Positions 47,557 to 56,405 of a stretch of 64,000 nucleotides of DNA are shown piece after piece (positions within the stretch are counted from its first letter, which is position 1; the number at the start of each line of letters is the position of its first letter). The notes beneath the pieces are model-generated. The model did not search any database and was not told the origin of the DNA. It was given only the letters and a program-made list of their open reading frames with translations. Source of the stretch: Rubrivirga marina (lineage in GTDB: Bacteria > Bacteroidota > Rhodothermia > Rhodothermales > Rubricoccaceae); the NCBI RefSeq assembly GCF_002283365.1, contig NZ_MQWD01000001.1:1795395-1859394 (forward strand), written 5' to 3'. The translations under genes were made by a program, and so were the position numbers.

Positions 47557-49407
47557 CTAGAAGCCGGTGGGGGAGGGCCGCCAGTCGCGGGCGACCTCGG
47601 CGTAGAACCGCTGGAGCACGCCGAACGCCAGCTTCCGCTCGCCGCGCTCGGACAGCAGGCCCTTCCGGTTCCAGAACTCCTGGATCGTCGGGAGCGGACG
47701 GCGCGGGCTCCGGAAGTCCATGAGGATCCACGGGCTCAGGCCGCGCAGGAACGGGACGTCCCGGAGCATGGCGAGCTGCTCCTCGTAGAGGTAGGCCTGG
47801 TAGTCCTCGCTCCAGCGCGTGAGCGAGTCGCCGCGGAGGCCGTAGAGCGCGCCGGCCCCGAACTCCGAGAGCACGAGCGGCTTCCCGACCGTGTCCTCCC
47901 AGCGGATCGTCCCGATCTTGTCGGGCAGCCCGTCGTACCACCCCACGTACTCGTTCACGCCGACGACGTCGAGGTGCTCGGCCAGCGGGTCCTCGACGCG
48001 GAAGACGGTCGAGCCGTCGGGCTGGCGCTCGTGGTCGGCGAAGACGGCGGCCGTGATGAGGCGGGTGGGGTCGAGGGCGCGCGCGGTCTCCGTGAGGCGC
48101 GTGAGGAAGTCGGTGCGGGCGGGCGAGACGGGCGTCTCGTTGGCCACCGACCACAGGACGACGGCCGCCCGGTTCTTGTCGCGCGTGATCATCTCGCGGA
48201 GCTGCTGGTCGGCGCTGGCGAACGTGGCCGGGTCGTCCCAGGCGAGGGCCCAGTAGGCCGGGATCTCGCTCCACACAAGGAGCCCCATCTCGTCGGCCGC
48301 GCGGACCATGGCCTCGTTGTGCGGGTAGTGCGCGAGGCGGACGTAGTTGCACCCGAGCTCCGTCGCCCACTCCAAGAGCTGGCGGTCCTCGTCGGGCGTG
48401 AGCCCACGTCCGCCCCGAAACGGCGCCTCCTCGTGGATCGAGATGCCGCGCAGAAACACGGGCTCGCCGTTGACGAGCACGTCGACCCCGTCGACCTCGA
48501 CCGTCCGGAACCCGATCCGGTCCTCGACGCGGTCGGTCTCGGCTTCGACCACGACGTCGTAGAGGCGCGGGTCGAGGGGCGCCCACCGCTCGCCGCGGAA
48601 CGGGAGGCGGAGGCGCGCGACGCCGTCGGCGTCGGTCTGCGCGCTCGCCTCGGCGCCGAGTTCGGGGATGGCCACCCTCACGCGCTGCCCGAGGCGGGCA
48701 CCGTCGAGGGCGACCCAGGCGACGATCTCCTCCGGCGCCTCGGGGTCGAGCTGGACGCTGTAGTCGCGGACGTAGGTCGCGGGCAGGCGGAGGAGCCGCA
48801 CCGAGCGCGTGATGCCGCCGTAGTTCCACCAGTCCATGTTGTCCATCGGCACGCCCGCCTTGCTCCGCGTGTCGTTGGCCATGACGACGAGGGAATGGTC
48901 CTCCGCCTCGGCGCCGACGTGGTCGGTGATCTCGACGTCGAACGGCGTGTAGCCGCCCTCGTGCTCGGCGAGGAGGTCGCCGTCGAAAAACACACGGGCG
49001 CGGGCGTTGACGGCGCCGAACCGGAGGATCAGCCGTTCGTCCTCGGCACGGGCCAGCCGGACGCGGCGGCGGTACCAGACCGTCCCCTCGTAGAGGAAGA
49101 GCTCGGGCCGCTGGCTGTTCCAGTCGCCCGGGACGTGGAGCGCGTCGGCCGCGTCGAAGTCGTACTCGAGGCGGTCCCACCGTTCGGTCTCCTGGGCGTC
49201 GTGAGCGAACCAGCTGGTGGTCAGCGGCTCGTCGAAGATGTTGCGGTAGCCGACGTCGTACGGGTCGACGACGACGCGCCAGGCGCCGTCGAGGACCTCG
49301 TGGGCACGGCCGTCGGCGTGCTGGACGAGCGGGACGTGGCCGGTCTGCGTGGCGGCGGGGAGGGCGGCCGTCACAAGGAGGGCGAGGGCGATCGAGCGGG
49401 GGGACAT
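47557..49407 (-). CDS. Secreted GH2 glycosidase (beta-galactosidase/beta-glucuronidase family)
   Basis: A 616-residue exported glycoside hydrolase. Signal peptide about 1-21. A sugar-binding jelly roll (about 35-210: HVPGDWNSQRPELFLYEG, WWNYGGITRSVRLLRLP), an Ig-like domain (about 215-305), and a TIM barrel (306-616: GISIHEEAPFRGG, NYVRLAHYPHNE). Acid/base E424 is in LWSVANETP and the nucleophile E515 in VLSEFGAGA; NEYVGWYDG (485-493) precedes it, as in beta-glucuronidases. Substrate class remains open between galactoside and glucuronide. No T9SS tail is visible. The longer in-frame ORF to 49533 runs into the tRNA-Thr gene, so ATG 49407 is right. Confidence 0.88.
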   Translation of the reverse strand: MSPRSIALALLVTAALPAATQTGHVPLVQHADGRAHEVLDGAWRVVVDPYDVGYRNIFDEPLTTSWFAHDAQETERWDRLEYDFDAADALHVPGDWNSQRPELFLYEGTVWYRRRVRLARAEDERLILRFGAVNARARVFFDGDLLAEHEGGYTPFDVEITDHVGAEAEDHSLVVMANDTRSKAGVPMDNMDWWNYGGITRSVRLLRLPATYVRDYSVQLDPEAPEEIVAWVALDGARLGQRVRVAIPELGAEASAQTDADGVARLRLPFRGERWAPLDPRLYDVVVEAETDRVEDRIGFRTVEVDGVDVLVNGEPVFLRGISIHEEAPFRGGRGLTPDEDRQLLEWATELGCNYVRLAHYPHNEAMVRAADEMGLLVWSEIPAYWALAWDDPATFASADQQLREMITRDKNRAAVVLWSVANETPVSPARTDFLTRLTETARALDPTRLITAAVFADHERQPDGSTVFRVEDPLAEHLDVVGVNEYVGWYDGLPDKIGTIRWEDTVGKPLVLSEFGAGALYGLRGDSLTRWSEDYQAYLYEEQLAMLRDVPFLRGLSPWILMDFRSPRRPLPTIQEFWNRKGLLSERGERKLAFGVLQRFYAEVARDWRPSPTGF

Positions 49408-49502
49408 GGGCGGCGGTTCACGGTGTTTTCGGCCAGGGGCGGGTTGGCGGGCCCGGCGGGGCGTCGTAGGTTTCGCACCCGCTGGCGCCCGCCGCCGGCC
49501 AC

Positions 49503-49574
49503 GCCAACGTAGCTCAGGGGTAGAGCAGCTCACTCGTAATGAGCAGGTCGTCGGTTCAAATCCGACCGTTGGCT
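49503..49574 (+). tRNA. tRNA-Thr(CGT), island insertion site
   Basis: A 72-nt cloverleaf: acceptor GCCAACG/CGTTGGC, D arm GCTC/GAGC, anticodon stem GCTCA/TGAGC around CTCGTAA (anticodon CGT, reads ACG), T arm GTCGG-TTCAAAT-CCGAC, discriminator T, no encoded CCA. A tyrosine recombinase begins 163 bp downstream on the same strand, so the 3' half of this tRNA is the likely attachment site. Confidence 0.95.
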
Positions 49575-49737
49575 CCCGAGACCGGCCTCCAGACCCCTGG
49601 AAAGCCGGTCTCTTCGCTTCGGGCTCCCACGCCGACCGCCGTCCCGGCCACCGCCGGGCCCCCGAACGGTCAACATGTGGTCAACGGCCGCCGCCGGTCG
49701 CACGGGGTTCCAAGCGCTGCGACAGCCCCGCAGCCCC

Positions 49738-50796
49738 ATGGCACGGCTCCACCGCTCGAAGGGCAGCTACTACGCCCGGTTCCACGACAAGACGAAGTCG
49801 CCCGCCCGGAAGACGGTCCCTCTCCGGACCCGCGACGAGGCCGCCGCCCGCGCGGCGCTCCGCCGGCTCGAGGTCCACTACGCCGAGGGCCGGTTCGACC
49901 CCTGGGCCCCTCCCGAGGCCCCGCCCACCCGCCTGTCCGAGGCCGTCGCGGTCTTCTTCGAGGCCAAGGCCCACCGGGCCCCGGCGACGCTCCGGCTCTA
50001 CCACACGGTCCTCGACGGGCTCGTCGCGCACGTCGGCGACCCGCTCCTGAGGGACGTCCGGCCCCGCGACGTCCTCGCCTTCCTCGGCGCCCGCGACCTC
50101 AACGACACGGGCCGCGACGCGTACTTCACCCGGCTCAAGGCGTTCTTCCGGTGGTGCCGCCGGCAGGGCCTCGCCGACGACGTGGTGACCGACCGGGTCG
50201 ACGTCCCGCGCGGCCCGCAGGTGTTCCCGCACTGGCTGACTCGGGACGAGTTCGGCCGGCTCGTCGGCGCGATCCGGTCGGCGGCCGGCGAGGCCAACGA
50301 GGGCGAGGTCGCGTGGCTCATCCCGTTCGTCACCGTCGCCGTGTACACCGGGCTCCGGCTCGGGGAGCTCGTCGGGCTCCGCTGGGCCGACGTGGACCTC
50401 GAGTCCCGGCGCCTCGTCGTCCGGAACCGGGCGGCGGCCCGGACCAAGAGCAGGAGGGACCGGTCGGTCCCGCTCGCGGGCCCGGCCGTCCGGGCGTTCG
50501 AGTCGGTGGGGAGAGGGGACCGCGAGGCGCTCGTGTTCGTCGGCGCTGGCGGGGGGCGGGTCAACAAGGAGTACGCGTCGAAGGCGTTCCTCCGGTACCG
50601 CCGGGCGGCCGGCCTCGCCGAGGAGATCCACTTCCACTCGCTCCGCCACACGTGTGCCTCGTGGCTCGTCCAGGGGGGCGTCTCGCTCGTCCGGGTCAAG
50701 GAGGTCCTCGGGCACGCGTCGATCCAGACGGTCATGCGCTACGCCCACCTCGCGCCGAGCACCGCGCTCGACGAGGTGGAGCGGGCGCTCGGGTGA
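49738..50796 (+). CDS. Tyrosine recombinase/integrase
   Basis: A 352-residue site-specific recombinase. An N-terminal arm/AP2-like region (MARLHRSKGSYYARFHDK), a SAM-like core-binding domain (about 62-150: RLSEAVAVFFEAKAHRAPAT), and a catalytic domain with the full set: R207 (YTGLRLGEL), K about 237, H300xxR303 (HFHSLRHTCAS), H326 (VLGHASIQ) and nucleophile Y335 (TVMRYAHLAP). Position right after tRNA-Thr, in the same orientation, implies an integrated element using that tRNA. ATG 49738 begins the arm domain; upstream in-frame codons are not conserved. It converges with a three-gene minus-strand module whose last stop is 18 bp away. Confidence 0.93.
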   Translation: MARLHRSKGSYYARFHDKTKSPARKTVPLRTRDEAAARAALRRLEVHYAEGRFDPWAPPEAPPTRLSEAVAVFFEAKAHRAPATLRLYHTVLDGLVAHVGDPLLRDVRPRDVLAFLGARDLNDTGRDAYFTRLKAFFRWCRRQGLADDVVTDRVDVPRGPQVFPHWLTRDEFGRLVGAIRSAAGEANEGEVAWLIPFVTVAVYTGLRLGELVGLRWADVDLESRRLVVRNRAAARTKSRRDRSVPLAGPAVRAFESVGRGDREALVFVGAGGGRVNKEYASKAFLRYRRAAGLAEEIHFHSLRHTCASWLVQGGVSLVRVKEVLGHASIQTVMRYAHLAPSTALDEVERALG

Positions 50797-50814: not shown

Positions 50815-51354
50815 CTACAGGACGTCGGGGTGGAGGACGACGAAGGCGACCCGGTCGGTGGCCACGACGTTCCTCTCCCCGTCGTCGTCGGTGAACGCGA
50901 AGAACGGGGCGAAGAGGAAGCCCTCGGGGACCGTGTCCGGCAACGTATCGGCGGTCTCGCGTGTCTGGTCGTGGAGGTCGAGCACGCCGACGCCCTCGAT
51001 CCCGATCGTCACGACGGGCGGGGCCCACTCGTGCTCCTCGGCGACCCGCTCCGGGACGGCGACCCCGTAGACGCCGGGCGGGGGAGGCCCCTCGGCCAGC
51101 CCGTACTCGTACGAGTGGGTGACGAGCGTGAGGTGCTCGCGGTCGAGGAGGGCGAGGGAGCCGTCGGCGAGCGGGACGCGGACCCAGAGCGGGGGCTCGT
51201 CCGCCGGCTCCCCGTCGTCGTCGACGGGGAACGTGAGCGCGGCGAGCGTCGCCTCGGCCGCGGCGGCGGACACGCCGAAGGTGACGGGCTCCGGCAGTCC
51301 CTCGAACGTGACGAGGAGGTAGTTCTCGGCGAGCGAGTACGGCCGGAACTCCAT
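50815..51354 (-). CDS. Unknown acidic protein of the island module
   Basis: A 179-residue soluble, acidic protein without recognised family. It opens MEFRPYSLAENYLLVTFEGL and has alternating predicted strands (PVTFGVSAAAAEATLAALTF, WVRVPLADGSLALLDREHL), with an aromatic FLFAPFFAFTDDDGERNVV near the C-terminus. No cysteine, signal peptide or membrane segment. It is the third gene of a minus-strand cluster, 38 bp after the DUF5131 gene, so probably co-transcribed with it and the HTH gene. Could be an accessory or immunity component; this is only positional. Confidence 0.6.
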   Translation of the reverse strand: MEFRPYSLAENYLLVTFEGLPEPVTFGVSAAAAEATLAALTFPVDDDGEPADEPPLWVRVPLADGSLALLDREHLTLVTHSYEYGLAEGPPPPGVYGVAVPERVAEEHEWAPPVVTIGIEGVGVLDLHDQTRETADTLPDTVPEGFLFAPFFAFTDDDGERNVVATDRVAFVVLHPDVL

Positions 51355-51392
51355 GGGTCGGGCGGGGCGATGGGTGTTGGGACGGCAGAGCG

Positions 51393-52229
51393 TTACTCCC
51401 GGCGGGCTCCACGGGCGCTCGTCTTGGCCGCCGCGGCCTGGAGACACGCGTGGCGCATGAACTCCGCGTACCACTCGGGCTCGTCGTCGTGGGTCCGGCC
51501 GTCTAGCTCACGGCCGGCCCGCTTGGTCCCGACGAGGTCGCCCTCGGCGTCGTGTGCGCCCCACTGCTTGAAGTGGAACGCGACGCCCTGCTCGGCGCAC
51601 GCGTCGCGGATCTCGCGGGCCCACTCCGGCCGCATGGGCCGGGCGCCCGCCTCGCCCGGCGTGTGCGAGTCGCTCTCGCCGCCCACGATGGCGTAGTCGA
51701 TGCCGGTGAGGTCGACGTGGCCGTCGGCGTCGAGGACCGAGCCGAGGAGGGGCTCGAAGCTCACGAACGTCCGGCGGGCCCCGCATTCGCGGAGCGCGTC
51801 GAGGCGGTACGAGCGCTCGGCGTCCTCGACCGACACGCCGGCCATGACGTGGTCGCCCCATGGGAGGTGGGGCCCGAGTTCGGCCAGCCGGCGCTCCCGT
51901 TTCGTCAGGACCATGTAGAGGTGCCAGGGCGCCCGGCCCATCGCCTCGAACACCTCGTACACGAACTCGTCCGGGATCGCCTCGTGGAGGAGGTCGCTCA
52001 TCGAGTTGACGAACACCTTCGAGGGAGTGAGCACGCTGGCCGTCGCGTCGAGCGTCCGGGGGTGGAGCGTGACGGCCGTCCCCGCTGCGTACTTGCCGGG
52101 GACGTTGTACTGGAGCCGGCTCTCGACCTCCGAGAACATGTAGCACCGGTCGCAGCCGGGAGAGACCCGCGTGCACCCGGTCGTCGGGTTCCACGTCTCC
52201 TCGGCCCACTCAATCTTCGTCGCGGCCAT
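51393..52229 (-). CDS. DUF5131 / phage Gp37-Gp68 family three-Cys-motif protein
   Basis: A 278-residue protein. The cluster C19-x6-C26-x2-C29 (TGCTRVSPGCDRCYM) follows WAEETWNPTTG and fits a radical-SAM-like Fe-S site; the rest is a TIM-barrel pattern: VFVNSMSDLLHEAIPDEFV (72-90), PWHLYMVLTKRERRL, VMAGVSVEDAERSYRLDAL, FVSFEPLLGSV, YAIVGGESDSH, and the end segment GVAFHFKQWGA. Known in phages and mobile elements and often near genes called three-Cys-motif partners (TcmP); no TcmP is seen here. Reaction unknown. ATG 52229 is taken (MAATKIEW); a longer start at 52307 adds a hydrophobic non-conserved stretch. Confidence 0.85.
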   Translation of the reverse strand: MAATKIEWAEETWNPTTGCTRVSPGCDRCYMFSEVESRLQYNVPGKYAAGTAVTLHPRTLDATASVLTPSKVFVNSMSDLLHEAIPDEFVYEVFEAMGRAPWHLYMVLTKRERRLAELGPHLPWGDHVMAGVSVEDAERSYRLDALRECGARRTFVSFEPLLGSVLDADGHVDLTGIDYAIVGGESDSHTPGEAGARPMRPEWAREIRDACAEQGVAFHFKQWGAHDAEGDLVGTKRAGRELDGRTHDDEPEWYAEFMRHACLQAAAAKTSARGARRE

Positions 52230-52303
52230 CCCGACGGCCGCCACGAGCGCGGCGGCGAGTGCGAGCGGGAGGGGGGCGGCGGTGACGACGGTGACGAGGA
52301 CGA

Positions 52304-53992
52304 TCATTGACGGGAGGACGGGCGGGGGAGGTCGGCTGTGACCGGCGCGGGGGCCCGCTCTGGGGTCTGTTCTGGATCATCGGCGACGCCTGACAGGCCG
52401 TCCCACGGGCGGTGCGGGACGTCGGCCGCCGCGACGAACGCGAGGCCGCGCGGTCTCATCCCGAGGAAGGAGTCGTAGGCCCCGCGGCTCGTCCTCTTGC
52501 CGCGGAGGATGACGGCCGACGCTGAGGCGGGGAGACGGCCGAGCAACTCGTCGGGCAGGGGAGAGGGCCAGCTATCGAGCACCAAGATGCCACGGACCCC
52601 CGCTCTGTCGAACGCGTCGAGCGCGCGACGGGCGGCCTCCACTCCGTCGTCGTCCGCGCCGTCGATGCCGATGGCCGGGTGGACATTGGGTGGCCACGCG
52701 ACCGCGTCGAGCCGGTCGGCGTGCCGTGTGGCGGCGAGGAACGCGAGGTGTTCTCCGGCCCCCGCACGTCGTAAGATCTCGGAGACGACCTCGTCGGGGA
52801 GGTCGGACCGGAGAAGGTCGACGCCCGGGGCTAGGAGGACCGCTCGGGCAGTCGGGAGTCTGAGGTCGAGGGCGTGCGGCCGCGTGTTCGCCGGTTGTGT
52901 GAGCCGCGCCGGGACGTAGCACGGCGGGGCGGCGTCGGAGGCGGGGAACCACGAGGTCGCGCTCCGGAACGGGCCGGGGAGGAGGACGGGCCACGTCCAG
53001 GCGGCCACCTCGGGCTCGAGTCGGCAGCGGGCCATCGACCGTCGTCCCCTGACGTCGCGTCTCTCGATCGGGTCGAGGTCGTCGGTGTCGTCCTCGTCCA
53101 GCGCCCCGACGAGCGGCGAGACGAGGCCGCTCGTCGGCGCGTACGCTGCGAGGTACGAGCCGCCGACCACGCTGAGCGCGGCCGTGGCGTCCGGGCTGGT
53201 GTCCGACCGGTCGAGGAGGTGCCTCTCCAGCAGGACCGTGAGGCCTCCGGGGACGTCGGTGCGTCGTGGAGCCGGTGCGCCCCGTTCGGTGGCGAGCGCT
53301 CGGACGGCCCCGCGGAGCGCGGCTCGGTCGACCGACTTGAGCCGTCCCTCCGCGTCGTACGACGTGTCCGCGTCGGCCTCGTGGGTCGCCCGTCGCCAGA
53401 CCTCCGCTTCGTCGCCCGGGTCGAGCAGCCCGAGGGCCCACCTCGTCTCCCGGTGGAGGTCGTCGGACGGGGCCGGGTTCCCGTCGAGCTCGCGTTCGAG
53501 CGCGGCCAAGCCGAGCCGTGAGGGGAGCGGCTCGGCCCCCGTGCCGAGGACCCCCGCCACGGCGTTGGCGGCGAGCTCGACATCCTCCTGTGTGAGCCGC
53601 GCCTCGTCGCCTCCCGTCGTCTCTAACGCTCGCTCCCATGCCCGGCGGCGGTCGGCGGCTTTGTCGAGCCCCGTGAGCGGCCGGAGCTGGGCCTCGCTGC
53701 GCGGGAGGGGGGCGACGCCCGCCTCCTCGAACTCGGCGTACACGCGGCCCGCCTTCGCGAGCTGGTAAGCTCGTCGGCGCCGGATCCCGAACGTCGCGAG
53801 GGCGAACTCGGCGAACGTGCCGGTCTCTACGTAGAGCTCATCGTCCATGATCGCAGCGAGGGCCCTCGCTGCTTCCACGCTCTTGGCCTGGTACTCCCGC
53901 ACGGTGGCGACGTGGGCGTCGAGGGCGATCCGGTCGGCGTCTGCCAGGCGGCGTTGGACACGGACCTCCGCCGTGGGTATGGGATCGGGCAT
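52304..53992 (-). CDS. ParB-like HTH protein with degenerate DUF5131-like C-terminal domain
   Basis: A 562-residue protein. Residues 55-125 show a plasmid/ICE-type HTH module: GTFAEFALATFGIRRRRAYQ, LPRSEAQLRPLTGLDKA. The middle is helical and acidic. The C-terminal third (about 330-530) appears to align with the neighbouring DUF5131 protein: PHALDLRLP...VLLAPGVDLLRSDLPDEVVSEIL (372-407) against LHPRTLD...VFVNSMSDLLHEAIPDEFVYEVF, then HLAFLAATRHADRL against HLYMVLTKRERRL. At the three-Cys position only one cysteine remains (C358-Y359). Start ATG 53992. It is the first gene of the minus-strand cluster, 74 bp before DUF5131. A DNA-binding partner or adaptor is inferred. Confidence 0.72.
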   Translation of the reverse strand: MPDPIPTAEVRVQRRLADADRIALDAHVATVREYQAKSVEAARALAAIMDDELYVETGTFAEFALATFGIRRRRAYQLAKAGRVYAEFEEAGVAPLPRSEAQLRPLTGLDKAADRRRAWERALETTGGDEARLTQEDVELAANAVAGVLGTGAEPLPSRLGLAALERELDGNPAPSDDLHRETRWALGLLDPGDEAEVWRRATHEADADTSYDAEGRLKSVDRAALRGAVRALATERGAPAPRRTDVPGGLTVLLERHLLDRSDTSPDATAALSVVGGSYLAAYAPTSGLVSPLVGALDEDDTDDLDPIERRDVRGRRSMARCRLEPEVAAWTWPVLLPGPFRSATSWFPASDAAPPCYVPARLTQPANTRPHALDLRLPTARAVLLAPGVDLLRSDLPDEVVSEILRRAGAGEHLAFLAATRHADRLDAVAWPPNVHPAIGIDGADDDGVEAARRALDAFDRAGVRGILVLDSWPSPLPDELLGRLPASASAVILRGKRTSRGAYDSFLGMRPRGLAFVAAADVPHRPWDGLSGVADDPEQTPERAPAPVTADLPRPSSRQ

Positions 53993-54420
53993 GGGCGGCC
54001 GGTGGGTGGACGTGGGCGTAGACGAGCACACGGATGCTACGGAAGCTGATGCGATCTCGGGCTCGTACCATCGGCCTGCTTCACGATGTCCTCTATGCCG
54101 GCTCTGCTCCGGCGCGAACGGCGGCTCCGCTCGGCCGGCCCATGCCGACCGGTTCCGGGGCCGCGCTTTGGCGCCGGGAGTTACGGCCGTGGTTAGGGAG
54201 GCGCTCATGTAGCGGGTTCGATCTCGCGATGCGAGTACTCAAACCCGTGAGTACATTGTCGGTATCCAGTCGCGGTGATCACTCAGTTCTGCGCGGCGTC
54301 CACACGCACGGCGGTCTGCCGGCGACGCTGGCTGAACCGCTCGCCTCGTCCCACGCCGCGATCATCCATGATCGCCGTGCTAAACGAGCCGCGGCCCCGC
54401 CAGCGTCGCCCCAAGGTCCC
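53993..54420. other. 428-bp divergent control region
   Basis: Lies between the ParB-like gene (-) and the Shedu gene (+). G+C is lower than elsewhere around 54180-54300, and third-codon positions there are not GC-biased, so the ORFs crossing it are unlikely to be translated. It holds a 7-bp inverted repeat (54235-54254). No tRNA or other gene is seen. Confidence 0.6.
54235..54254. promoter_or_regulatory. Operator-like inverted repeat before the Shedu gene
   Basis: GTACTCA-AACCCG-TGAGTAC, a perfect 7-bp inverted repeat with a 6-bp spacer, in an AT-richer stretch about 170 bp upstream of the preferred Shedu start. Fits a dimeric HTH repressor site. The nearby HTH protein (53992) is a possible binder, unproven. 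Confidence 0.45.
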
Positions 54421-55557
54421 GTGGAGCTTGTCCAGATCGTGAGGAGTGGAGGCGCGGCGCGGTGCGACGACGTGGTCCTTCGTGAGACCTCGACGACCCG
54501 CCTCGTCTTCCGGGCCGTCCTCGTCGACAACGCCAAGGACGCCGCGCAGCCCGTCCGGGGTTGGATCGTCTCGCAACGGAAGCGGAAGGGCGACGAGTGG
54601 GAGGACCACAACGAGGTCGCGCTCTCGAACATGAGGGCCGGGGAGTGGGTCAAGACGGAGCTCCGCGCCGAGGAGGTCGACAAGCTCGTGCGCCACGTCG
54701 GAGGCCTCTACCGGCTGTACCGGTCGGGCGGGCTCCCGTCGGGGAAGACCCACTTCCTGAAGCTAGATCTCCAGGCTGGAGAGTCCCCCGAGGATCTCGA
54801 GGGCACGGTCAGGACGCTCCTCGCCCTCGGCCGCCGGTCTGGCCTCGACACTTTCGGGAAGGTCGTCGACCTCACGCTCCGCGACGAGGACTCTGCCGAG
54901 GTCGTCCGCCAGCTCGAGCGCCTCGAGGTTTCGACGGTCCAGAAGCTCCAGAGCCTCGCCGGCGTCGCCGCCCTCCGGGCCGCGCTCGACACCTGGGAGG
55001 CGAACGAGGGCAACACGAGCGAGGAGTTCTGGCAGCAGACGTTCAAGGACAACGCGTTCATCCTCTCGCAGGCCTTCAGCGTCCCGGTCCTTCTCATCCA
55101 AGACAAGGCCTACGTCGGCGGGCGTGAGCTCTCGCGCGAGGGGGCGACCGAGCTCGACTTCCTCTACGCCAACCCGATCACAGCGAACGCGGCGTGCGTC
55201 GAGATCAAGACGCCGGCCACGCCGCTCCTCGGCACGCCCTACCGGGGGAAGTCGGGCGGGCGAGTGTACGGTGCGTCCGTCGAGCTCTCGGGCGCCCTGG
55301 CCCAGGTCCGCAACTACCGGTACCGTCTGACGACGGGGTACTCCCACCTCCGGATTGAACGCGAGGGGGAGTTCGAGGTGGCCGCGCCCCGCTGCCTCAT
55401 CGTGGCAGGCCATGCCGGCTGCAGCCTAGGCGATGACGACGCGAAGAAGCGCTCCTTCGAGGCCCTCCGTGGCGGACTCGCCGACATCGACGTGATCACG
55501 TACGACGAGTTGTTCGAGCGCGTACGGTCCCTCTGCTGCCTCCTCGAGGGTACATAG
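54421..55557 (+). CDS. sduA: Shedu anti-phage nuclease (SduA, DUF4263)
   Basis: A 378-residue (from GTG 54421) Shedu-type protein. The N-terminal part (1-190) is the family-typical mixed domain (LVFRAVLVDNAKDAAQPVRG). The core begins with NTSEEFWQQTFKDNAFILSQ (198-217). The PD-(D/E)xK nuclease site is ELDFLYAN with D246, then VEIKTP with E261 and K263, and ALAQVRNYRY with Q295. Shedu is an established single-gene anti-phage defence whose nuclease is regulated by its N-terminal domain. In-frame ATG 54229 would add 64 residues with neutral third-position composition across an operator-like repeat, so the later start is preferred; the exact start is uncertain. Confidence 0.85.
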   Translation: MELVQIVRSGGAARCDDVVLRETSTTRLVFRAVLVDNAKDAAQPVRGWIVSQRKRKGDEWEDHNEVALSNMRAGEWVKTELRAEEVDKLVRHVGGLYRLYRSGGLPSGKTHFLKLDLQAGESPEDLEGTVRTLLALGRRSGLDTFGKVVDLTLRDEDSAEVVRQLERLEVSTVQKLQSLAGVAALRAALDTWEANEGNTSEEFWQQTFKDNAFILSQAFSVPVLLIQDKAYVGGRELSREGATELDFLYANPITANAACVEIKTPATPLLGTPYRGKSGGRVYGASVELSGALAQVRNYRYRLTTGYSHLRIEREGEFEVAAPRCLIVAGHAGCSLGDDDAKKRSFEALRGGLADIDVITYDELFERVRSLCCLLEGT

Positions 55558-55793: not shown

Positions 55794-56405
55794 ATGGCCA
55801 TCCTCGGAACAGCGTACCACGAAGCCGGCCACGCCGTCGTCGACTTCGACCACGGCAACCTCGCCGGCACCGTCACCATCGTCCCTGACGCCGACCGCCA
55901 CTCGGCGGGGTCGTCCCAGGCCGAGGAGTGGGACAGCGGCCTGGGCGAGGGGAGCACCGGCGACGACGGGGTCGCGGCGATCGAGGCGAAGGTCGTGGCG
56001 CTCTACGCCGGTCTCGAGGCGGAGCGGCTGGTCGACCCTGGGGCCGTCGTCGGGGCCGGCGATGATTACGAGAAGGTCCAGTGGCACGCGGACCTCGCGG
56101 GGCTCGACGACGTGGCCTTAGACGCGCTCCGCCACCGGGCCGCCGAGCACGTCGCCCGACGGCGGGACGTCATCGCCCGGCTCGCCCGCGTGCTCGTCGA
56201 CCTCCAGACGCTCGACCAGTTCCAGGTGGAGTGCGTCATCGAGGGCGAGCCATTCCGGACGGGCAACTCGCTCCGGAGCCCGCTCTACACAGCCCACCTC
56301 AGCGAGGGCGCTCAGCGGCGGTATGAGGAGGCGCGGTCCCGACCCAAACAGCGGGTCCACATCCCGCCGTTCGACCCCGACGACCCGACAGAGGCAACGC
56401 TTTAG
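55794..56405 (+). CDS. Stand-alone M41 (FtsH-like) metallopeptidase domain
   Basis: A 203-residue soluble protein whose N-terminus is a peptidase M41-like zinc site: AYHEAGHAVVDFDHG with H9-E10-x-x-H13, and VGAGDDYEKVQ (86-96), the counterpart of FtsH GASNDFERAT, giving the third ligand D91. There is no AAA+ ATPase or membrane anchor. Such proteins occur sporadically in phages and mobile elements; function unknown, perhaps a small processing protease. ATG 55794 lies just before the motif. It follows the Shedu gene by 236 bp, in which no further gene is seen. Confidence 0.75.
   Translation: MAILGTAYHEAGHAVVDFDHGNLAGTVTIVPDADRHSAGSSQAEEWDSGLGEGSTGDDGVAAIEAKVVALYAGLEAERLVDPGAVVGAGDDYEKVQWHADLAGLDDVALDALRHRAAEHVARRRDVIARLARVLVDLQTLDQFQVECVIEGEPFRTGNSLRSPLYTAHLSEGAQRRYEEARSRPKQRVHIPPFDPDDPTEATL

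What the first reader, a model, noticed from the sequence alone, without database searches (positions are those of the whole stretch)
50815..53992. Three-gene minus-strand module next to Shedu as candidate defence system
HTH/ParB-like protein, three-Cys DUF5131 and an unknown acidic protein are closely spaced in one direction, inside an island that has an integrase and a Shedu nuclease. Defence genes cluster, so the module is a candidate uncharacterised anti-mobile-element system. It lacks the TcmP partner often associated with three-Cys proteins.
Basis: inference. Interest (0 to 1): 0.6.

Follow-up and report, generated by a model that had tools for sequence, protein, structure and literature searches.

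The report
Working enzyme paired with decayed copy
On a mobile piece of bacterial DNA, an uncharacterised iron-sulphur-type enzyme sits beside a DNA-binding protein that carries a worn-out copy of the same enzyme, a pairing also seen in two other bacteria that may help mobile elements or hosts act on DNA during genetic conflict.

Summary
The three genes exist as described, but only two form a conserved unit. The acidic gene (50815-51354, pI 4.05) has no relative in 244 genomes of the class, in the plasmids or in the phages searched. The C-terminal part of the HTH protein (52304-53992) is a degenerate copy of DUF5131: it keeps one of three cluster cysteines and 4 of 20 family-invariant residues tested. 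The gene next to it is an intact DUF5131. The same HTH-plus-decayed-copy then intact-copy order occurs in two other genomes of the order. Relatives in three further places of the class, in Streptomyces plasmids and in viral contigs have one protein with a DNA-binding part fused to an intact DUF5131, so the pair looks like a fusion enzyme whose domain decayed while a separate copy took over catalysis. The DUF5131 model has a radical-SAM fold, nearest spore photoproduct lyase (Z 11.3). DUF5131 with TcmP is PADLOC's untested candidate PDC-M30/M41; here TcmP is absent. Defence is plausible (Shedu, restriction, AbiE neighbours; tRNA-bounded island) but unproven. Best reading: a DNA-directed radical-SAM pair serving mobile-element conflict; a new variant of a known candidate kind.

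The parts
52304..53992 (-). HTH protein, 562 aa: N-terminal HTH domain (about aa 21-150), low-confidence middle, C-terminal degenerate DUF5131 domain (about aa 319-525)
   Evidence: hhalign to DUF5131 prob 97.2, E 3.9e-11 with 3-row profile, 63.5-67.9% alone; HTH homology
52418..53038 (-). decayed radical-SAM (DUF5131) domain: one of three cluster Cys left, SMSD changed to PGVD, LTK to ATR, SxEP lost
   Evidence: alignment; 4 of 20 tested invariant residues kept
51393..52229 (-). intact DUF5131, predicted radical-SAM enzyme, 278 aa, Cx6CxxC
   Evidence: Pfam 6.9e-77; AF2 pLDDT 85.5, pTM 0.85; spore photoproduct lyase Z 11.3
50815..51354 (-). acidic orphan protein, 179 aa; co-directional but not conserved with the pair
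   Evidence: no match over a family cutoff as the 219-aa ORF
54034..55557 (+). Shedu nuclease SduA, divergent neighbour
   Evidence: SduA_N 1.8e-23, SduA_C 2.9e-18; PADLOC 1.7e-101
49675..50796 (+). tyrosine integrase of the island
   Evidence: Phage_integrase 1e-34; 39% identical to the integrase beside the G225 fused copy
49503..49576 (+). tRNA-Thr(CGT), left attachment site; 53 bases of its 3' part (49523-49575) repeated exactly 72.7 kb downstream in the genome

Best explanation
A two-gene accessory of an integrative element. Shown: an intact DUF5131 gene follows a gene whose protein joins an HTH domain to a decayed DUF5131 domain. Inferred: DUF5131 is a radical-SAM enzyme (three-Cys 4Fe-4S cluster, TIM-barrel-like fold). 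The decayed domain no longer catalyses but still pairs with the intact enzyme, so the HTH brings the catalytic subunit to DNA. There it carries out radical chemistry on a base or nucleotide, modifying or repairing DNA, most likely to protect the element or to act on competing phages and plasmids. The acidic gene is a separate or local cargo gene.
For: Decayed domain; among 498 ORFs near DUF5131 genes only these three places exceed 8% probability, each the gene directly upstream on the same strand. Reverse search with the decayed domain's profile: of 13 non-self places in 395 genomes, 12 are DUF5131. Fused intact relatives: G197, G225, second copy in the same genome, Streptomyces NBC_01238 plasmid with the same HTH, 9 viral contigs. 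HTH shared by split and fused forms. Partners of window and G164 are sisters, and so are their decayed domains, so the pair travels together. Fold. Settings.
Against: No experiment. Only three split pairs are known. Pairing of the two proteins is inferred from gene order, not modelled. Cx6CxxC is not the canonical radical-SAM CxxxCxxC, and Pfam Radical_SAM did not match the window protein. Foldseek found no match at E <= 0.001. The AF2 model of the HTH protein is poor overall (mean pLDDT 54.7) and its alignment held DUF5131 rows. G164's HTH only weakly resembles the window's (9.8%). DUF5131 also occurs in 156 phage records, which fits a phage or element function as well as host defence.
Confidence: 0.42

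Rival explanations
1. Element maintenance: the HTH protein is a plasmid or island regulator or partition-type protein, and the radical-SAM pair serves replication, repair or stability of the element rather than defence.
For: The HTH domain occurs alone in cyanobacterial plasmid proteins; one fused relative has a weak ParB_N match (0.07); the G197 copy lies near a ParA gene; DUF5131 is common in phages and plasmids.
Against: The window island has no identified plasmid-type partner gene beside the pair; neighbours in 4 of 6 HTH-type loci are defence genes.
Confidence: 0.3
2. A true anti-phage system: a form of PDC-M30/M41 in which the HTH-decayed protein replaces TcmP as specificity subunit.
For: Intact DUF5131 matches PDC-M41B 1.1e-77 and M30B 3.1e-74; TcmP proteins match the A models; HTH-type loci have no TcmP (0 of 6); Shedu, restriction and AbiE neighbours.
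Against: PDCs are mostly unvalidated (PMC12988326, passages); the same family is carried by phages; no background rate for defence neighbours was computed.
Confidence: 0.25
3. Decay without function: an old HTH-DUF5131 fusion is dying, and the intact DUF5131 beside it is an independent gene.
For: Decayed domains are very divergent (end branches 1.3-4.3); the partner of G194 groups apart from those of the window and G164.
Against: Open frames of 414-566 aa persist in three families with the intact gene always next (gap 33 bp in G164, 4 bp in G194), and the window and G164 C-terminal regions are 38% identical.
Confidence: 0.12
4. Viperin-like chemistry: the enzyme acts on nucleotides, not DNA.
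For: Viperins are the second-ranked fold group (Z 9.4) and rank high for the decayed domain (Z 9.8).
Against: Spore photoproduct lyase ranks about 2 Z above; the partner carries an HTH domain.
Confidence: 0.1

Closest known systems
PADLOC PDC-M30 and PDC-M41 (TcmP + DUF5131)
   Same: The intact DUF5131 matches the B models of both
   Different: No TcmP; an HTH protein with a decayed DUF5131 domain stands in its place
HTH- or ParB-like-DUF5131 fusion proteins (Streptomyces plasmids, IMG/VR contigs, G197, G225, second copy in this genome)
   Same: Same enzyme family; same HTH domain in G197, Streptomyces NBC_01238 and one viral contig
   Different: Fused enzyme is intact with CxxxCxxC (second copy in this genome: Cx3Cx4C); in the two Streptomyces loci and 6 of 9 viral loci a TcmP-like gene lies upstream; here the functions are split into a decayed and an intact copy
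Spore photoproduct lyase
   Same: Best fold match, Z 11.3 over 200 residues
   Different: 10% identity; no detectable sequence match in the PDB by profile; substrate unknown
NCBIfam TIGR04471 radical SAM mobile pair protein A
   Same: Distant sequence similarity, 1.5e-16
   Different: 60.6 bits against a cutoff of 355; the pair partner there was not looked for here

Membership tests
DUF5131 (PF07505) | Match over Pfam cutoff 28.9 bits | tested here: met
   258.7 bits, positions 2-243 of 243
DUF5131 (PF07505), C-terminus of HTH protein | Match over Pfam cutoff | tested here: not met
   no PF07505 hit for the window protein, 0.077 for G164; homology rests on profile-profile comparison
PDC-M30 / PDC-M41 | B gene (DUF5131) | tested here: met
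   3.1e-74 and 1.1e-77
PDC-M30 / PDC-M41 | A gene (TcmP) beside it | tested here: not met
   no PADLOC A-gene match in neighbours; TcmP profile at most 1.4% over 238 ORFs of six HTH-type loci
PDC-M30 / PDC-M41 | Protection against phage | not testable with these tools
   none
Radical SAM superfamily | TIM-barrel radical-SAM fold | tested here: met
   top rows of the second look: SPL, viperin, lipoyl synthase, RlmN, SuiB, NifB, Z 8.0-11.3; Foldseek itself had no match at E <= 0.001
Radical SAM superfamily | canonical CxxxCxxC | tested here: not met
   window DUF5131 has Cx6CxxC; fused relatives G197 and G225 have CxxxCxxC
Radical SAM superfamily | binds 4Fe-4S and cleaves SAM | not testable with these tools
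   none
Spore photoproduct lyase | sequence family match and its H-donor residues | tested here: inconclusive
   fold match only; no PDB sequence match; residue mapping not available
TIGR04471 rSAM_mob_pairA | score over cutoff 355 | tested here: not met
   60.6 bits
ParB | ParB_N domain | tested here: not met
   no Pfam hit in window HTH protein
Shedu (neighbour) | SduA N and C domains | tested here: met

The most novel reading that the evidence does not exclude
A DNA-directed radical-SAM system in which a DNA-binding pseudoenzyme recruits an active paralogue to phage or plasmid DNA, a defence mechanism based on radical chemistry on DNA that evolved from a single-chain HTH-DUF5131 enzyme by decay of one domain and capture of a separate catalytic copy.
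Probability: 0.2. Interest if true: 0.82.

Novelty: new variant of a known kind. Interest (0 to 1): 0.58.

Why it matters
DUF5131 is widespread in plasmids (392 records) and phages (156 records); the text searches listed no paper that gives it a function. A radical-SAM assignment plus a DNA-binding decayed partner gives a testable hypothesis for its substrate (DNA) and for why TcmP or an HTH chain accompanies it. It would also be a natural experiment in how a single-chain enzyme becomes an active/inactive pair.

Tried and rejected
Three-gene system: rejected, since the acidic gene has no relative in 244 class genomes, plasmids or phages. My first tries, used an end one base off (541 bases, wrong frame) and are void; 126-128 replace them. 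ParB identity of the window protein: no Pfam support. Hidden TcmP: none. Finding more split pairs by pattern scans: searches found nothing; (HTH protein in phages) no match. Sequence search of PDB: none, one weak, only weak dehalogenase matches, ignored. Folds: the VIA lists cannot exclude other folds. Acidic gene against the 144-aa gene after DUF5131 in G164: unrelated. A Pfam scan of two genes at the far end of the island failed on coordinates and one of them was never scanned. The invariant-residue count used 20 of 23 invariant columns of A4 (I6, S186 and P251 left out). In one search one hit (G320, locus L089) is not DUF5131. The tree warns of long branches (WIN_pseudo, G194_pseudo, G000b), so placing the decayed domains beside the fused clade is tentative. 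The 22 viral loci were drawn by two peptide patterns, so their lack of TcmP is not a frequency. Neighbour data for most class loci reach only 1.5 kb, so 24 of 45 with TcmP is a lower bound.

Full report
What is there. The window holds three consecutive minus-strand genes between a tyrosine integrase and a Shedu gene. In transcription order they are the HTH protein (53992 to 52304), DUF5131 (52229 to 51393) and an acidic protein (51354 to 50815, pI 4.05). All have the codon-position GC of real genes in this GC-rich genome. The integrase follows tRNA-Thr, and 53 bases of the 3' part of that tRNA recur exactly 72.7 kb downstream at G000:C1:1917600-1917652, so the genes lie at the left end of an integrated element or composite island that runs past the window's edge. 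Near the other end is an SNF2/HKD-type helicase with matches to several PADLOC defence models (best C3a139 7.8e-43).

The main finding. The C-terminal third of the HTH protein is a degenerate DUF5131 domain. Profile comparison gives 97.2% probability, E 3.9e-11, with a three-row profile. In a blind scan of 498 ORFs of at least 120 aa within 5 kb of DUF5131 genes, only the ORFs of three places exceed 8%: window (63.5-67.9%, seen alone), G164 (96.1%) and G194 (91.4%) (some places are held in two or three overlapping loci). Each is the gene directly upstream of an intact DUF5131 on the same strand, with gaps of 33 bp in G164 and 4 bp in G194. In reverse, a profile of the decayed domain (window and G164) searched in 395 genomes of the phylum gave 13 places besides itself; 12 are DUF5131 and one (G320) is not. 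The decayed domains keep 4, 4 and 3 of 20 residues that are invariant among 21 DUF5131 proteins; the intact partners keep 20, 20 and 17, and fused relatives 14-15. The window copy keeps one cluster cysteine of three, the others none.

Where it came from. In the same genome (C1:210088), in G197 and in G225, one protein joins an N-terminal DNA-binding part to an intact DUF5131 with CxxxCxxC or, in the first, Cx3Cx4C. The window's HTH domain is homologous to that of G197 (94.4%) and G194 (95.7%), and G164's to that of the second copy in this genome (93.3%); 60 shuffled controls reached at most 1.4%. The window and G164 HTH domains resemble each other only weakly (9.8%). A Streptomyces plasmid protein (NBC_01238) has the window-type HTH plus intact DUF5131, while the S. 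caniferus one has a ParB-looking start, judged by eye only. Nine viral contigs encode relatives with the canonical motif and long N-terminal parts, the start codons being unsure in several; in one of them, L142, the HTH profile matches. The same HTH occurs alone in three cyanobacterial plasmid proteins examined. In a 38-row tree the stand-alone DUF5131 proteins are set off from fused ones (91/98 and 93/94), the window and G164 decayed domains are sisters (99/96), their intact partners are sisters (100/99), and G194's partner groups elsewhere. The simplest account is that a fusion enzyme lost its active site and a separate DUF5131 supplied it, perhaps more than once; long branches make this tentative.

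What the enzyme is. The AF2 model of the window DUF5131 is good (pLDDT 85.5, pTM 0.85). Foldseek gave nothing at E <= 0.001, but the second look ranked six spore photoproduct lyase entries first (Z 11.1-11.3), then viperin, lipoyl synthase, RlmN, SuiB and NifB. NCBIfam's radical SAM mobile pair protein A matches distantly, and Pfam Radical_SAM is hit weakly, below its cutoff, by G197 and G225. Together with the conserved cysteines this supports a radical-SAM enzyme; the substrate is not known. For the HTH protein the model is poor except for residues about 384-500, whose fold again resembles radical-SAM barrels, with the caveat that its alignment contained DUF5131 rows.

Relation to known systems. 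PADLOC's PDC-M30 and PDC-M41 are TcmP (A) plus DUF5131 (B). TcmP lies near 24 of 45 class places examined, a lower bound, but near none of the six HTH-type loci. These candidates come from a guilt-by-embedding survey cited in PMC12988326, which says most PDCs are unvalidated (passages). In one P. aeruginosa panel PDC-M30 was predicted in 32 strains, of which 68.8% were resistant (PMC10855318, passages), a correlation only. In S. meliloti a TcmP gene is listed beside the Hna defence gene in an expression table (PMC12445080, passage).

Setting of the HTH-type loci in the class. Window: integrase, Shedu. G194: tRNA-Ser, a type I restriction subunit (REase_I 4.2e-33) and a weak PDC-S61 match. G197: AbiEi/AbiEii and ParA. 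Second copy in this genome: an HNH protein with a type IV restriction match (1.2e-9). G225: tRNA-Ala and an integrase 39% identical to the window's, no clear defence match. G164: near a contig end, none found. So 4 of 6 have a PADLOC-recognised neighbour among those I scanned; I chose the proteins scanned and computed no background rate.

Verdict. The unit is a two-gene radical-SAM pair with a DNA-binding decayed subunit; the third gene is local. A DNA-directed role is the best reading; whether it serves defence or the element itself is open. Text searches for DUF5131, TcmP and Gp37/Gp68 terms, PDC names and pseudoenzyme/radical SAM/ParB terms (and passages of PMC10853773) turned up no description of this pair in the open-access library held, which lacks bioRxiv and most subscription papers.

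Noticed in passing
G000:C1:1917600-1917652 (locus L105, from 3600): Exact 53-base repeat of the tRNA-Thr 3' part marks the right end of a 72.7 kb element; in relative G178 a 15 kb stretch beside the same tRNA ends in a similar 46-base repeat.
   Followed up: partly
L108:8402-11785: 1127-aa SNF2/HKD-type helicase near the right end of the element, matching several PADLOC models (best C3a139, 7.8e-43).
   Followed up: partly
window 55794-56405: Small stand-alone peptidase with a HEAGH motif (Peptidase_M41 3e-5, below cutoff) directly after Shedu; a metalloprotease gene is also annotated near DUF5131 in Gordonia phage Angelique.
   Followed up: no
L129:4313-5317, L131:4263-5207: Upstream genes of the Streptomyces fused proteins look like very divergent TcmP (20.5% and 41.5% against a background of at most 1.4%), with relatives upstream of the fused gene in six of the nine viral loci.
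   Followed up: partly
G000:C1:210088-210723 (L040:5676-7889): Same genome carries a second, fused HTH-DUF5131 gene with a Cx3Cx4C motif next to an HNH nuclease gene on the other strand.
   Followed up: partly
window 47557-49533: The glycoside-hydrolase-like gene upstream of tRNA-Thr is missing between the flanking matches in G178 and G180, so the variable region may extend to both sides of the tRNA.
   Followed up: no
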